Source of the DNA: a virus
DNA: 35,152 nucleotides
Strand: one strand, 5' to 3'
Virus record (IMG/VR): IMGVR_UViG_3300050343_000008
Coordinates: 1-35,152 of that record
Positions 27,059 to 32,150 of the stretch are shown here, in pieces; within the stretch, counting starts at the first letter, position 1, and each line of letters starts with the position of its first letter. A model generated the notes under the pieces. It was not told the origin of the DNA and did no database searches. It worked only from the letters and a program-made list of their open reading frames with translations. A program made the position numbers and the translations under genes.

Positions 27059-27224
27059 TTACTTCCTCCTCTAGCTCTTGTTCAAACACATCCAGCCTGT
27101 TGATTAGTTTGTCCTCAAACCTGTCCAGAATCTGTTCTGAGGTTATCTGTAGGGCCTCCAGTAGGTCATCTGGATCAAAGGTTTTCAAGAGGCGTTCCTT
27201 AACTTCCTCTAGCGTTAGCGACAT
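27048..27224 (-). CDS. Small acidic coiled-coil protein (58 aa)
   Basis: A 58-residue gene too short for many callers. The product MSLTLEEVKERLLKTFDPDD continues into ALQITSEQILDRFEDKLINR and an acidic FEQELEEEVNEY tail, predicted nearly all helix. It has an AGGAG ribosome site, overlaps the endonuclease stop by 26 bases and the DUF3310 start by 11. Small acidic helical proteins with E-x-L-x-x-F-x-P-D-D-L occur next to endonuclease I in other phages, from memory. Function is unknown; a regulatory or interaction partner is possible. Confidence 0.75.
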   Translation of the reverse strand: MSLTLEEVKERLLKTFDPDDLLEALQITSEQILDRFEDKLINRLDVFEQELEEEVNEY

Positions 27225-27588
27225 AACTAATCAACTCCTGTAGTGTCTCTATATTATACCATAGTATTTTCTCTTTGTCACACCATTGTGCCATAGTCAT
27301 TTTTGCACCCTTACGTATTCTCTTGTTAGGCTGCATCAAAACAAAGATTAACTCTTGTCCTTCTGGGAGGCTGTCCCTGATGCTGGTGTATTTCTTGGTG
27401 TCTCCATCTCTGAAATATCCTTTGCACTCAATAAGATATAAACCGCTAGCATCAACGAAGTCAGGACGGTAGCTCCTAGAGATAGTGTAAGGAATAGTGA
27501 AAGGCTCATAGTCAAACTCCTGTAGTATTTTGGCGACATCTTCTTCAAACGTGCTTCTAAATGGTGATTTCTTGGACTTTCGGCTCAT
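27199..27588 (-). CDS. Endonuclease I-like Holliday junction resolvase
   Basis: A 129-residue protein of the T7 gp3 endonuclease I family, which resolves branched DNA and degrades host DNA. The PD-(D/E)xK site is intact: Glu15/Glu16 in STFEEDVA, Asp43 in YRPDF, and Glu54-Cys55-Lys56 in YLIECKGYF. This mirrors T7 residues Glu20, Asp55, Glu65 and Lys67. The N-terminus is basic (SRKSKKSPFRS). ATG at 27588 has AGAGGT upstream and lies within the 3' end of the exonuclease gene. In T7-like phages it works with exonuclease in host DNA breakdown and replication-intermediate processing, and the neighbouring gene supplies that partner. Confidence 0.92.
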   Translation of the reverse strand: MSRKSKKSPFRSTFEEDVAKILQEFDYEPFTIPYTISRSYRPDFVDASGLYLIECKGYFRDGDTKKYTSIRDSLPEGQELIFVLMQPNKRIRKGAKMTMAQWCDKEKILWYNIETLQELISYVANARGS

Positions 27589-28420
27589 TGTGTACCTCTA
27601 CTAAATAACGTGGACCGGTAGAATAAGCGAAGGCGCGAACGGACGGCCAGCATTCCTTTTTGTACGCACAGTATGAGCAACCTACGGCGAGTTTCTGGTT
27701 TCCACTCTTTCCATCGGCGATAGGCTCGTAGCATACGCCGGGTGGGGTTGGTTGCTCCACTAGCTTTTTTACGTGGTCAATGCGCTCCTTGATGTCATAG
27801 CCAATGAGGTCGTAGACAGGCGCTTGGGTATCCTCAGAGTCGTACATGAGGTACGTCAAATGCCCGTTCTGTTTGTCCATTGCTAACCATCCGAATTTAG
27901 TAGCACCTTCCGCATACGCATATCCCTTAATTTGACCAATGTATCCAAACGGGTCGTCATAAGCCAGAGTGCCGTCTTTGAATTTCCTAAACCCATACGT
28001 TGATACAGACTTAACATCAGTGACAATACCGTCGATTTTGCAGTCCATAGACCCTGTAATGCCGTTAACTTCACACTTCTTTTGTTCATCAGTAACCTCG
28101 TGTCCTGCTGCTTTAGTTAGAAACAACAGCATCTCTTCGATCAAGTGGCCGTAGAGGAACTTGACATAGGTGTGACCCTGTATCTCATCAGCTGTCTCTA
28201 CGTCGTTGTAGACGTTCCAGAGGTAACGGTCGTCACGTCCTATGTTAGACATACGTAGCTTACGTCCGTCCCTCTTCTTGCCACCAAACTCGTTACGCAT
28301 GAGTTCCTTGACATTCTCTCCGAACTTCTCAACACAAGCGTCAAAGTCCACACCCTCAGCTACTTCTTTTGTCTCCATTAGTTTGTAAATGTCAGAGACT
28401 AAGTTGTATACGTTTTTCAT
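27557..28420 (-). CDS. PD-(D/E)xK exonuclease, RecB/Cas4-like
   Basis: A 287-residue nuclease. The active-site run is GSMDCKIDG with Asp130, TDVKS with Asp135 and Lys137, and GYIGQIKGY with Gln163; GHLIEE (95-96) provides the upstream acid. The C-terminus has GCSYCAYKKECWPS (Cys248, Cys251, Cys257) and Cys230, a CxxCx5C layout like the iron-sulfur end of Cas4/AddB nucleases, though zinc is not excluded. It stands where T7-like phages encode their 5'-3' exonuclease (gp6). ATG at 28420 is chosen over one 54 bases upstream because it overlaps the preceding TGA as ATGA and follows AGGA. It probably supplies nucleotides from host DNA and supports recombination. Confidence 0.85.
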   Translation of the reverse strand: MKNVYNLVSDIYKLMETKEVAEGVDFDACVEKFGENVKELMRNEFGGKKRDGRKLRMSNIGRDDRYLWNVYNDVETADEIQGHTYVKFLYGHLIEEMLLFLTKAAGHEVTDEQKKCEVNGITGSMDCKIDGIVTDVKSVSTYGFRKFKDGTLAYDDPFGYIGQIKGYAYAEGATKFGWLAMDKQNGHLTYLMYDSEDTQAPVYDLIGYDIKERIDHVKKLVEQPTPPGVCYEPIADGKSGNQKLAVGCSYCAYKKECWPSVRAFAYSTGPRYLVEVHNEPKVQEITI

Positions 28421-28632
28421 TGGTAGTTTCCTACTATACCAGAGACAACCTCTTGAGCTTGTTCCGGTGTGCATTTAAACCACTCACTACGCCTTTCGTA
28501 CAACTTATGTAGCTCAGTGTGTGATTCTGACTCTGCGGCCCTGCGGTCGCTTACGTTCCACTTATAGTTTAACACATAATCCCTAAAAGGTGAAGAGGTT
28601 TGGTAGTTATTTAACCTGTCCTCTGCAGTCAA
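28417..28632 (-). CDS. GIY-YIG-type nuclease, C-terminal fragment
   Basis: A 71-residue frame with only a TTG start (28632), overlapping the preceding frame by 26 bases. It reads AEDRLNNYQTSSPFRDYVLN and continues to RRAAESESHTELHKLYERRS. This is the second half of a T5orf172/GIY-YIG-like domain: R-x-x-x-YQ-TSSP, then D-x-R-AAE-S-E-x-x-x-H. The first half is in the other frame, directly upstream. It joins as GMAID + AEDRL if one base is skipped near 28625. It could be translated independently by coupling, produced by +1 frameshifting, or be the tail of a broken gene. Its TGA overlaps the exonuclease ATG. Confidence 0.6.
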   Translation of the reverse strand: MTAEDRLNNYQTSSPFRDYVLNYKWNVSDRRAAESESHTELHKLYERRSEWFKCTPEQAQEVVSGIVGNYQ

Positions 28633-28885
28633 TAGCCATACCTACCTTGACCCACTCAGGGAAGTTAGGGTTGACAATGACGTACACTTGGCCCTCTACA
28701 CTGGACTCGTACTTTGCTAGACTACTGAAGGCAGCGGCTTCAAAGTTCTTGTATCGTCCGGGCTTGTGCAAAGGGTGCGACTTGGGTATGTACTTACCGT
28801 TTACGAACATCTTAGTCTGGTCTCGTTTCCACACAGACTCTGGGTTGTCCTTGTAGTACTTACCTTCTCCTTTCTTATAGTTCAT
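28607..28885 (-). CDS. GIY-YIG-type nuclease, N-terminal fragment
   Basis: A 92-residue frame with AAGGAG 7 bases before ATG 28885 (preferred over 28915, which lies inside the polymerase gene). It has a basic, possibly DNA-binding start (NYKKGEGKYYKDNPESVWKR; SHPLHKPGRYKNF) and then GQVYVIVNPNFPEWVKVGMA. The paired VYVI and VKVG strands are the GIY-YIG signature in its T5orf172-like variant. The frame ends abruptly (IDCRGQVK, stop), while the rest of the domain continues in the +1 frame. The protein is therefore truncated unless frameshifting occurs, or the sequence has a one-base error. Intact relatives would be nicking endonucleases. Confidence 0.65.
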   Translation of the reverse strand: MNYKKGEGKYYKDNPESVWKRDQTKMFVNGKYIPKSHPLHKPGRYKNFEAAAFSSLAKYESSVEGQVYVIVNPNFPEWVKVGMAIDCRGQVK

Positions 28886-28896
28886 AGTTGCTCTCC

Positions 28897-30528
28897 TTAG
28901 TGGGTTTCTGCCCATGTTGTTCCAACTTGGTACTCTCCATCAAGAGGGCATCTGAGGTTAAAGTGAACCCCTGACGCCTTGAGGCATTCGACTGCAAGCC
29001 AACCGAATTTCTCTGCTTGGTCTGTAGCCACCTCCGACTGTACTTCATCATGTATGTTCCCTATAAACTTGTAGTCTAGTTTCCACTGCGGTGCATAGTC
29101 GTCCAGTATGACTAGGGCCTTCTTCATCACGATGGCTCCTGCCGCCTGTAACAACGTATTCAATGCAGCATGTTCAGATCTAACTCTAAGTCTTCGTCCG
29201 TCAAGTCCTGTGAGATAGCCTCGCCCAGATGCTCGACCAACGCGTTCTCGTAGACTTTCAAGAGCAGGTGTATTTCGTAGAAATCGTTGTTTAAGTTTTG
29301 CGCCGTCTCGTGGGCTTCCTCCAACGATAGATCCAATTTTTGCATCTCCGGCTCCGTAAAGGAAAGCGTAGATGAAAGTCTTAGCTTGAGGTCTTGTTTC
29401 AAGCCCAGCAGCCATTTGGTTTCTTGTGTGAATGTCTTCGGTGAGAAGGACATTGGTAAACTCCTTGTCGTCCATGTAGTGAGCCAACATACGTAGCTCA
29501 AGGCCACTAGCGTCAAAACCTACTAGCTTCTTACCCTCTGGTACAGTCCAGCATGAGCGACACTCTTTACCGTATAGGCTGTGTCCTGCTGGTACTTGTG
29601 CCATGTTGGGGCTTTGGTGGGTCATGCGTCCTGTAACAGCGCCGTTGCTAATGACACGACCGTGGACTCTTCCGTCGTCCTGCACATGTTCCATCCATGA
29701 GTGTACCTGCGCGTATCTCTTTTGTAGCATCAAGTACTCACTGACGGACCTAGCCTCTGGAAGGTCAATGGTGGCTAGTACAGCCTCATCAACGATGGGA
29801 TTCCCTTTCTCCGTAACTTTATCGAAGACCACACCAAGCGACGATAAGCGCTTTGCAATTTGCTGCCTAGAGCCAACATTAAATACTTCAACTCTATCCT
29901 TAAGACGCTTACCGGTTTTCTCAGAATGGCGCTCGTGTATAATCGGAGGAAACTCCTCCTGAAGCTCCGCTTCAATTTCATTCATTCTCTCCTTAAATGT
30001 TGCTAGTAAGTCCATGCACTTGTACTGGTCCAAGAGCCACCCGTTTTTTTCCTGTTGGTGTACTACAAACTGTACCTTATGTTCCAAGTCAATGGACTGT
30101 TGGTCAAAGCTTGTCATGTCCTTGGTCAACCGCTGATGCACTGCTTCGGTGACTGCTACGTCTTGTATACAGTAGTCAATCATTTCCTGTGACAGTCTTG
30201 ACCAGTCGTTGTGGTCGCCTTTTGGAAAGCCTAGTTCGTTGCCCCAGTTGCGCAAAGAGTGTCCACCGGACTTGCTTGGGTCAAACAAACGTGACAACAC
30301 CAGAGTATCGACTATGCGCTCAGGAGCCACAGAAAGCCCCCAGAGACGTTTTAGCACTGGGAGGTCATAACCTATCAGATTATGTCCACAGACGCTTACA
30401 GAGCCTTCTAGAGCCTTTCTGAGCGATCTCTGGTCCAGATGCACCTCAGTTTCACCGTTCTGCTGTGTCACAACGCACCAGATGGTGTCTGGGTCTAAAC
30501 CGTTGGCCTCAAGGTCAAGGTAGATCAA
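28897..30528 (-). CDS. polA: Family A DNA polymerase with 3'-5' exonuclease
   Basis: A 543-residue T7-like replicative polymerase. Proofreading: Exo I DLEANG (Asp5, Glu7), Exo II GHNLIGYD (Asn50, Asp55), Exo III YCIQD (Tyr119, Asp123). Polymerase: motif A FDASGLELR (Asp339), motif B RPQAKTFIYAFLYGAG (Arg379, Lys383, Tyr387, Tyr391), motif C HDE (493-495). All catalytic residues are present. Tyr387 sits where E. coli Pol I has Phe762, as in T7, a state linked with lytic viruses. It is shorter than T7 gp5 (704), so thioredoxin-binding and other insertions are probably missing. It overlaps the primase-helicase stop by 4 bases (ATGA). Confidence 0.96.
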   Translation of the reverse strand: MIYLDLEANGLDPDTIWCVVTQQNGETEVHLDQRSLRKALEGSVSVCGHNLIGYDLPVLKRLWGLSVAPERIVDTLVLSRLFDPSKSGGHSLRNWGNELGFPKGDHNDWSRLSQEMIDYCIQDVAVTEAVHQRLTKDMTSFDQQSIDLEHKVQFVVHQQEKNGWLLDQYKCMDLLATFKERMNEIEAELQEEFPPIIHERHSEKTGKRLKDRVEVFNVGSRQQIAKRLSSLGVVFDKVTEKGNPIVDEAVLATIDLPEARSVSEYLMLQKRYAQVHSWMEHVQDDGRVHGRVISNGAVTGRMTHQSPNMAQVPAGHSLYGKECRSCWTVPEGKKLVGFDASGLELRMLAHYMDDKEFTNVLLTEDIHTRNQMAAGLETRPQAKTFIYAFLYGAGDAKIGSIVGGSPRDGAKLKQRFLRNTPALESLRERVGRASGRGYLTGLDGRRLRVRSEHAALNTLLQAAGAIVMKKALVILDDYAPQWKLDYKFIGNIHDEVQSEVATDQAEKFGWLAVECLKASGVHFNLRCPLDGEYQVGTTWAETH

Positions 30529-32150
30529 AAGTCTGCTCCTACTTCAGGGTTAGCTACTTCTTGCATTCTACCGGTGGTCCTGTCGTACTGTAAGTAACAC
30601 GCTGGGCCTGTCTCACCAGTGTAACGATTCTTCAGGACTCGAACAGTAGTCGTGTTCCTGATGTCCTCGTTACCGTTTTGCTGATCACGTTCCATGCCTA
30701 TTACTATGTCTGACAGTTGTGCGATTGCCTGTGAACCTCGTAGTTCACCCAAGGATATCTGAGCACCGTCCTCGTGTGCCTTACCTTGGGATCGTTTGAG
30801 GTGTGAGACTAGGAATAAACTAATGCCTGTCTCTGCCACAAGCGTACGCAGCTTAGTCATTATTTCATCAATGGCTTTTCGTTCGTCTCCGGACTCTTGG
30901 GAAGACACGACGATGGACAGGTGGTCCAGTACGACATACCGGCAGTCCAAAGCTTTTGCCATGTAGCGAACACGGGCGAGCAAGTTATCTGTTGAAGTTG
31001 ACCCCCAATGGTCGAATAGGTAGTAACGTCCTGTTCCCAGTGTGGCTTCCCAGTAGGGCCGTAGCTGGTCCACAGGCGTGTCCTCTTCCAAGTGTAGAGG
31101 CCTGTTTGCCGCCACCGACATGATACCAAGACTTGTTCGGGCCACGTCTTCTTCGAGGGCCAGCACCCCAATATTTCCTTCACATCGCTGTAGAAGGTCA
31201 TACTCAATTTCTCTGATGAACTGTGACTTGCCCATACCACTACCGCTGGTGATCGTAACGAGTTCATACGGCCTATGCCCTCTGGTTATATGATTGAGGC
31301 CCTCCCAAGGGTACGGAATGGACTTGACCTGTCGTTTCTCAACGAGCTTGTCCCACGTCTCCGTACCTGCAATGATGCCGTCAGGACGGTACACCTTAGC
31401 GTTCCACCATGCTTGGGTGAAGTCCTTGACACGGTTCGCCATGAGCATGTCACTGGCGTCCTTGAGTGGTAGCTTGCAGACCTTCAGCTTGTTAGGACTA
31501 AAGAGGTCCTTCACTGCGTCCACTGCTACGTCACCCGCCTTGTCATTATCAAAGCATAGGACTACGTTTTCGTACCCTTCGAGCCACTCCAGTTGCTCTT
31601 TGATCTCCTTGGATGCGTTGTTAGCACCAGAGCGTAGCGACACTACGTCGTACTGCTTATTGAACATCTCGTACACAGCGAGGGCGTCAAGCTCCCCTTC
31701 GGTGATCGTGATGTACTTGTTGTTGGTGCACTGTTGTTGACCGAAGAAGCCAACACCTGTCACGTCTCCAGAAGAACAGAAGCCCTTGGTTTTAACGTCA
31801 CGGGACTTTGCAGCACTGACCTCCCCTGTGTCTAACTTGTAGTAAGGGTAGTAGTGCTTGATGATTTCGCCCGTCTTGGAGTACTCCACAGTGACACCGA
31901 AGCGAGCGCACGTCTCCTGTGAAAGCCTACGTTGTGGTATTGCCGCTACCGTACCGCCCATGCTCAGGGGTTTAGCTTTTGGCAGTTCCTGTTGTTGCGT
32001 TGTCATTGGTTTCTCGCCGTCCCCAAATAGATGATAGTCACAACCAGAGGCGAAACAGTGTTCGCCCCCGTTGTCGTAAATAGCGAGAGCGTCCGAAGAA
32101 CCACACTCCGGACAACTCTCGTGACGTAGGAACTTAGAAGTCTGCGGCAT
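30525..32150 (-). CDS. Primase-helicase (T7 gp4-like)
   Basis: A 541-residue bifunctional replication protein. It has a zinc-binding domain with CPEC (Cys13, Cys16) and Cys32...Cys37; a TOPRIM primase core TEGELDAL (Glu151) and CFDNDKAGD (Asp201, Asp203); and a RecA-type helicase with Walker A SGSGMGKS (302-309), ALEED (331-335), Walker B VVLDH (Asp409), VSHLKR (His450) and GSQAIAQLSD (472-481). It primes Okazaki fragments and unwinds DNA ahead of the polymerase. ATG 32150 is preferred to a TTG at 32177, which would enlarge the overlap with the binding-protein gene. The order binding protein, primase-helicase, polymerase forms a compact replisome operon. Confidence 0.95.
   Translation of the reverse strand: MPQTSKFLRHESCPECGSSDALAIYDNGGEHCFASGCDYHLFGDGEKPMTTQQQELPKAKPLSMGGTVAAIPQRRLSQETCARFGVTVEYSKTGEIIKHYYPYYKLDTGEVSAAKSRDVKTKGFCSSGDVTGVGFFGQQQCTNNKYITITEGELDALAVYEMFNKQYDVVSLRSGANNASKEIKEQLEWLEGYENVVLCFDNDKAGDVAVDAVKDLFSPNKLKVCKLPLKDASDMLMANRVKDFTQAWWNAKVYRPDGIIAGTETWDKLVEKRQVKSIPYPWEGLNHITRGHRPYELVTITSGSGMGKSQFIREIEYDLLQRCEGNIGVLALEEDVARTSLGIMSVAANRPLHLEEDTPVDQLRPYWEATLGTGRYYLFDHWGSTSTDNLLARVRYMAKALDCRYVVLDHLSIVVSSQESGDERKAIDEIMTKLRTLVAETGISLFLVSHLKRSQGKAHEDGAQISLGELRGSQAIAQLSDIVIGMERDQQNGNEDIRNTTTVRVLKNRYTGETGPACYLQYDRTTGRMQEVANPEVGADF

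What the first reader, a model, noticed from the sequence alone, without database searches (positions are those of the whole stretch)
28417..28885. GIY-YIG-type nuclease split by a one-base frameshift
The minus-strand frame 28607-28885 ends just after VKVGMAID, and a second frame beginning AEDRLNNYQTSSP continues the same domain. Skipping one base near 28625 restores a continuous T5orf172/GIY-YIG-like protein of about 156 residues. This is a fresh mutation, an assembly error, or a programmed +1 frameshift; no classic slippery codon is seen.
Basis: partly seen in the sequence, partly recalled or inferred. Interest (0 to 1): 0.6.

Follow-up and report, generated by a model that had tools for sequence, protein, structure and literature searches.

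The report
Private frameshift in optional phage nuclease
In this marine phage sequence a single extra base cuts a small GIY-YIG nuclease gene in two, but every relative examined has the gene unbroken or lacks it, so this is an ordinary one-off mutation or sequencing/assembly slip in a dispensable gene, not a special decoding trick.

Summary
On the minus strand the gene starting at 28885 hits TAA at 28607-28609 just after VKVGMAID (plus six out-of-frame residues). The next frame continues the same domain to a TGA at 28417-28419. Reading across gives 155 aa that match Pfam T5orf172 and MUG113 (both about 1e-12). The first piece alone matches nothing.

The lesion is private to this record. The closest relative aligns over 8,740 bp at 98.5% identity, and this base is the only indel. 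All 80 best IMG/VR relatives are uninterrupted there, as are all 138 distinct polA-exonuclease intervals carrying the gene. This rules against programmed frameshifting and natural two-protein splitting. Mutation and consensus/assembly error cannot be separated without reads.

The gene is an optional cassette. Between polA and a Cas4-like exonuclease, relatives carry this GIY-YIG gene, an Endonuclease VII-type HNH gene, a PD-(D/E)XK gene, or only 12 nt. Frameshifted T5orf172 genes near replication and RNR genes are already documented (Barth et al. 2023). Ordinary; the nuclease-swapping slot is the more interesting by-product.

The parts
28417..28885 (-). T5orf172/MUG113 GIY-YIG-type nuclease gene carrying a +1 nt lesion; 155 aa if read across the lesion
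28607..28885 (-). N-terminal piece: 86 native residues plus CRGQVK, ends at TAA; contains the GIY/YIG-equivalent hairpin (GQVYVI...VKVG) but no Arg/Glu part
28417..28629 (-). C-terminal piece in the next frame (AEDRL...GNYQ), with the conserved R90, E118, H122 and E134-W135-F136; a mechanical ORF starts at TTG 28632
28626..28628 (-). Interval holding the one extra base (GACTGCAGAG here; GACTCAGAG in the closest kin, GATGCAGAG in another close relative)
28897..30528 (-). DNA polymerase A-type (polA), left border of the variable slot; its stop TAA is 28899-28897
27557..28420 (-). Cas4-like PD-(D/E)XK exonuclease, right border of the slot; ATG 28420 overlaps the nuclease gene's TGA (ATGA) and has its own AGGA at 28432-28429
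27199..27588 (-). Phage endonuclease I (T7 gp3-like Holliday junction resolvase), present whatever occupies the slot

Best explanation
A one-base insertion private to this sequence disrupts an accessory T5orf172-type GIY-YIG nuclease gene in the slot between polA and a Cas4-like exonuclease of an uncultured marine phage. Shown: the lesion, its absence from relatives, and the optional presence of the gene. Inferred: translation stops at 28607, leaving a 92-residue product that has the GIY-YIG hairpin but lacks the conserved Arg and the catalytic-type Glu, so the nuclease is inactive; the exonuclease downstream keeps its own ribosome site. Loss is tolerable because many close relatives have no gene, or a different nuclease gene, in that slot. 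Whether the extra base was in the phage DNA or arose in sequencing, consensus or assembly is open (about even odds).
For: Joined protein matches T5orf172 and MUG113, N-half alone matches nothing. All 80 nearest IMG/VR relatives uninterrupted. Single indel in 8,740 bp at 98.5% identity to the closest contig. In loci holding both neighbours, 138 distinct slots with the gene, each one continuous match, longest open frame at least 150 codons; this includes 23 and 21 distinct GIY loci chosen by polA or exonuclease similarity and so not by this gene. The +1 degenerate pattern gives 0 hits in viral contigs against at least 120 for the control pattern. Intact copies are under purifying selection, median dN/dS 0.14 against 0.12 for polA and 0.08 for the exonuclease, and the window copy is still 98% identical in protein to its kin, so the break is recent. 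The slot may be empty or hold other nucleases. Frameshifted, variably present T5orf172 genes near essential phage genes are described in PMC10448857.
Against: No reads are available, so mutation and artefact cannot be told apart. The sequence GACTGCAG is exactly the union of two natural alleles, GACTCAG and GATGCAG, which hints at a consensus merge of co-occurring strains; however 6-9% of random insertions would look like that against relatives at least 90% identical, and 12-22% against all relatives, so this is weak. The collections leave out records very near the window's own, so sister genomes with the same lesion could be hidden.
Confidence: 0.94

Rival explanations
1. Assembly or consensus artefact (sub-case of the best explanation): reads of two co-occurring strains, one with Asp-Ser (GAC TCA) and one with Asp-Ala (GAT GCA), were merged so that both variant bases were kept and one base too many was written. 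The gene is intact in nature.
For: The window is locally the exact union of the two alleles. No other copy is broken. It is the only indel in 8.7 kb, in a gene otherwise under purifying selection.
Against: By my enumeration, 6-22% of random one-base insertions would show the same union pattern. No homopolymer is present. Indels elsewhere in the coding part of the window come in frame-preserving sets, so the contig is not error-rich.
Confidence: 0.48
2. Programmed +1 ribosomal frameshifting makes a full-length nuclease from the two frames.
For: The downstream frame is open and unmutated, and both halves are conserved in sequence.
Against: All relatives encode the protein in one frame. The +1 arrangement is absent from IMG/VR. 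There is no stop codon at the shift point (ATT GAC TGC) and no slippery tetranucleotide.
Confidence: 0.02
3. Two separate functional polypeptides (split nuclease), the second started from TTG 28632.
For: A TTG lies at the start of the second frame and AAGGTAGG lies upstream.
Against: No homologue is split at this boundary. The cut goes through one compact domain, and the N-half matches no family.
Confidence: 0.02
4. The intact gene family is a mobile free-standing homing endonuclease, and the broken copy is a stage of its decay after fixation (compatible with the best explanation; it concerns what the gene was for).
For: T5orf172 genes in phages have been interpreted as homing endonuclease genes that are variably present, frameshift-prone and near RNR or replisome genes (PMC10448857). 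The slot lies between polA and an exonuclease, near RNR, and alternates between empty and filled, with at least 8 state changes on a 66-tip polA tree.
Against: No sign of faster horizontal spread than polA: no pair has close GIY genes and distant polA, and dS values correlate at 0.65. All other copies are intact. No cleavage site or homing was shown here or, for the vibriophage genes, in that paper.
Confidence: 0.45

Closest known systems
T5orf172 (PF10544) / MUG113 (PF13455) GIY-YIG subfamily of phages, including the putative homing endonucleases of vibriophage ICP1 (Barth, Dunham and Seed 2023, PMC10448857)
   Same: Same domain over its full length; located near RNR and replication genes; presence varies between close relatives; frameshifted copies occur in that family.
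   Different: Single short protein without a recognised Zn-finger repeat (CapR, DUF723-like) part; the variable N-terminal 35 residues match no Pfam family; all relatives but this one intact.
T4 seg genes (free-standing GIY-YIG homing endonucleases, PMC2988022)
   Same: GIY-YIG nuclease gene in an intergenic position between conserved replication genes.
   Different: Several T4 Seg proteins have experimentally shown cleavage sites and homing; nothing of this kind is shown here.
Roseobacter phages CRP-235, CRP-2 and CRP-603 hypothetical proteins
   Same: Closest named-phage homologues of the protein (55.5%, 51.5% and 33% identity), uninterrupted.
   Different: Located elsewhere in the genome: near RNR and glutaredoxin in CRP-2, upstream of the terminase in CRP-235, not between polA and the exonuclease.

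Membership tests
T5orf172 / MUG113 GIY-YIG nuclease domain | Profile match above Pfam's gathering score | tested here: met
   Joined protein 48.8 bits against 20 and 48.5 against 22.3
T5orf172 / MUG113 GIY-YIG nuclease domain | GIY-YIG-type hairpin followed by conserved Arg and Glu in one polypeptide | tested here: not met
   Met in all aligned homologues (invariant G65, Y68, K80, G82, R90, E118, E134); in the window the frame is lost between G82 and R90, so the gene as written does not encode it
T5orf172 / MUG113 GIY-YIG nuclease domain | GIY-YIG fold | tested here: inconclusive
   Model of the L002 homologue (mean pLDDT 72.5, confident C-terminal half) gives only weak Foldseek matches to GIY-YIG Slx1 (6sei, 4xm5, 4xlg; probability at most 0.35, none significant)
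Free-standing homing endonuclease | Presence/absence polymorphism at a fixed site between close relatives | tested here: met
   Empty 12-nt slot, GIY, Endo VII and PD-(D/E)XK states; for example L027 with the gene and its polA sister L230 without
Free-standing homing endonuclease | Horizontal spread beyond that of flanking genes | tested here: not met
   No locus pair with GIY dS below 0.15 and polA dS above 0.4 among 118 loci
Free-standing homing endonuclease | Site-specific cleavage of the empty allele and super-Mendelian inheritance | not testable with these tools
   Needs protein and mixed-infection experiments
Programmed +1 frameshift gene | Two-frame arrangement conserved in relatives | tested here: not met
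Programmed +1 frameshift gene | Slippery codon with slow A-site codon or stop at the shift point | tested here: not met
   ATT GAC TGC AGA GGA at 28633-28619, no stop until 28609

The most novel reading that the evidence does not exclude
The interval between polA and the Cas4-like exonuclease in this marine phage group is a dedicated nuclease-exchange slot, where unrelated small nucleases (GIY-YIG, Endonuclease VII-type HNH, PD-(D/E)XK) replace one another or are absent. They may perform an interchangeable task, such as branched-DNA processing or exclusion of co-infecting relatives, and the frameshifted copy is a natural knock-out at that slot.
Probability: 0.3. Interest if true: 0.45.

Novelty: new member of a known kind. 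Interest (0 to 1): 0.17.

Why it matters
As a finding it matters little: it is one broken copy of a common phage nuclease gene, and it warns against annotating two proteins or a programmed frameshift here. If the extra base is real, the copy is a natural loss-of-function allele in a slot where relatives carry alternative nucleases, which makes the slot a usable natural comparison for asking whether small phage nucleases next to polA are selfish or useful.

Tried and rejected
Programmed frameshift: rejected by homologues and by the pattern scan with control. Natural two-protein split: no example found. Error-rich contig: rejected, because indels elsewhere in coding parts against contig G001 come mostly in frame-preserving sets and only this one stands alone in 8.7 kb. 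Merge of two alleles as proof of artefact: attractive, but a control over all possible one-base insertions gave 6-22% union-like by chance, so it is kept only as a hint. Recombination junction at the lesion: SNP phasing showed alternating resemblance to L002-like and L008-like kin within a few bases and no clean switch. Fold search: no significant PDB match, only weak Slx1 hits. PDB sequence search gave only chance matches. Annotated phage DNA search found only one weak DNA relative.

Full report
What is there. The window is a 35,152-base virus record of an uncultured marine phage. It has terminase, portal, capsid and tail genes on the plus strand, and on the minus strand an SSB-like protein, primase-helicase, polA, the gene in question, a Cas4-like exonuclease, phage endonuclease I, a DUF3310 protein and a B12-type ribonucleotide reductase. 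Its polymerase is at most 49% identical to cultured pelagiphages and roseophages.

The observation. The gene starts at ATG 28885 behind AAGGAGAG (28898-28891), just after the polA stop (TAA 28899-28897). Its frame ends at TAA 28609-28607 with CRGQVK after VKVGMAID. The adjacent frame resumes at AEDRLNNYQTSSPFRDY and ends with a TGA that overlaps the exonuclease ATG. Reading across gives 155 aa with full-length matches to T5orf172 and MUG113; the first piece alone has none.

Is it conserved? No. The 80 best IMG/VR relatives (72-98% identity) are all uninterrupted. The closest contig shares 8,740 bp at 98.5% identity, with one indel: this base. Because ranking by full-length match could hide broken copies, loci were also fetched by polA and by exonuclease similarity. 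Of distinct loci containing both neighbours, 138 have the gene, each as one continuous match with an open frame of at least 150 codons; the polA-selected and exonuclease-selected subsets hold 23 and 21 distinct GIY loci. The two-frame arrangement is therefore private, as far as these collections show; records very near the window are left out of them.

What caused it. Closest kin read GACTCAGAG (Asp-Ser-Glu); another close relative reads GATGCAGAG (Asp-Ala-Glu); the window reads GACTGCAGAG. The window is the union of the two, as an alignment-based consensus of mixed strains would produce. But a test over all 1,285 possible single insertions shows 6-9% (kin at least 90% identical) or 12-22% (all kin) would look like such a union, so this is only a hint. 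There is no homopolymer. Other indels in genes against the nearest contig largely preserve frame, so the record is not generally faulty. Fresh mutation and artefact remain about equally likely.

Consequence. The predicted product keeps the GIY-YIG hairpin equivalent (GQVYVI, VKVG) but loses R90, E118 and E134-W-F, which are invariant in the aligned homologues. Loss of nuclease activity is inferred. The downstream exonuclease loses its ATGA overlap with a translated stop but has its own AGGA eight bases before ATG, so it is probably still made (inference).

The setting. The gene is optional. Among polA-selected loci the slot is empty (12 nt) in 26, GIY-YIG in 23, Endonuclease VII-type in 8 and PD-(D/E)XK_5 in 2 (families). 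On a polA tree of 66 sequences at least 8 changes of slot state are needed, with sister pairs such as L027 (GIY) and L230 (empty), and L216 (GIY) next to L210/L212 (Endo VII). The replacements sit precisely between the polA stop and the exonuclease start. Endonuclease I is present whatever the slot holds, so a missing resolvase is not the reason for the cassette. Where present and intact, the GIY gene evolves under purifying selection similar to polA (dN/dS 0.14 and 0.12) and without excess horizontal spread, which does not favour recent homing but does not exclude it.

Comparison with the known. Barth, Dunham and Seed 2023 (PMC10448857) describe T5orf172 genes as putative homing endonucleases that vary between close relatives, are unstable through frameshifts, stops and deletions, and cluster near essential genes including RNR and the replisome; homing of the vibriophage ICP1 genes was not tested. 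T4 seg genes are the experimentally established analogue (PMC2988022). The present case fits that known pattern. I file the gene family under T5orf172 GIY-YIG nucleases and the window copy as a broken member; I do not file it as a homing endonuclease, since the spread test was not met and cleavage is untested.

Verdict. True observation, ordinary explanation, low interest. The nuclease-swapping slot is worth a separate look.

Noticed in passing
window 28417-28899 and homologous slots, e.g. L210, L218, L230, L246, L262, L274, L350: The interval between polA and the Cas4-like exonuclease holds, in close relatives, a GIY-YIG gene, an Endonuclease VII-type HNH gene, a PD-(D/E)XK_5 gene, another HNH-like gene, or only 12 nt.
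   Followed up: partly
Alignment A1, residues 1-35 of the nuclease (e.g. L026, L028, L040, L048, L062, L075): The N-terminal 25-35 residues of the nuclease come in several dissimilar versions in front of a conserved VNGKYIPKSHPLHKPGRYK core, which suggests exchange at the 5' end of the gene.
   Followed up: no
window 30520-30530 against L008, L009, L010: Alignments to several relatives break at the primase-helicase/polA border near 30527, with the two sides matching as separate pieces (about 150-760 nt extra in the relatives); a second variable slot may lie there.
   Followed up: no
window 1-24900 against contig G001: The replication half is 98.5% identical to G001, while the structural half ranges from about 68 to 97% with unalignable stretches, a strong modular mosaic.
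   Followed up: no
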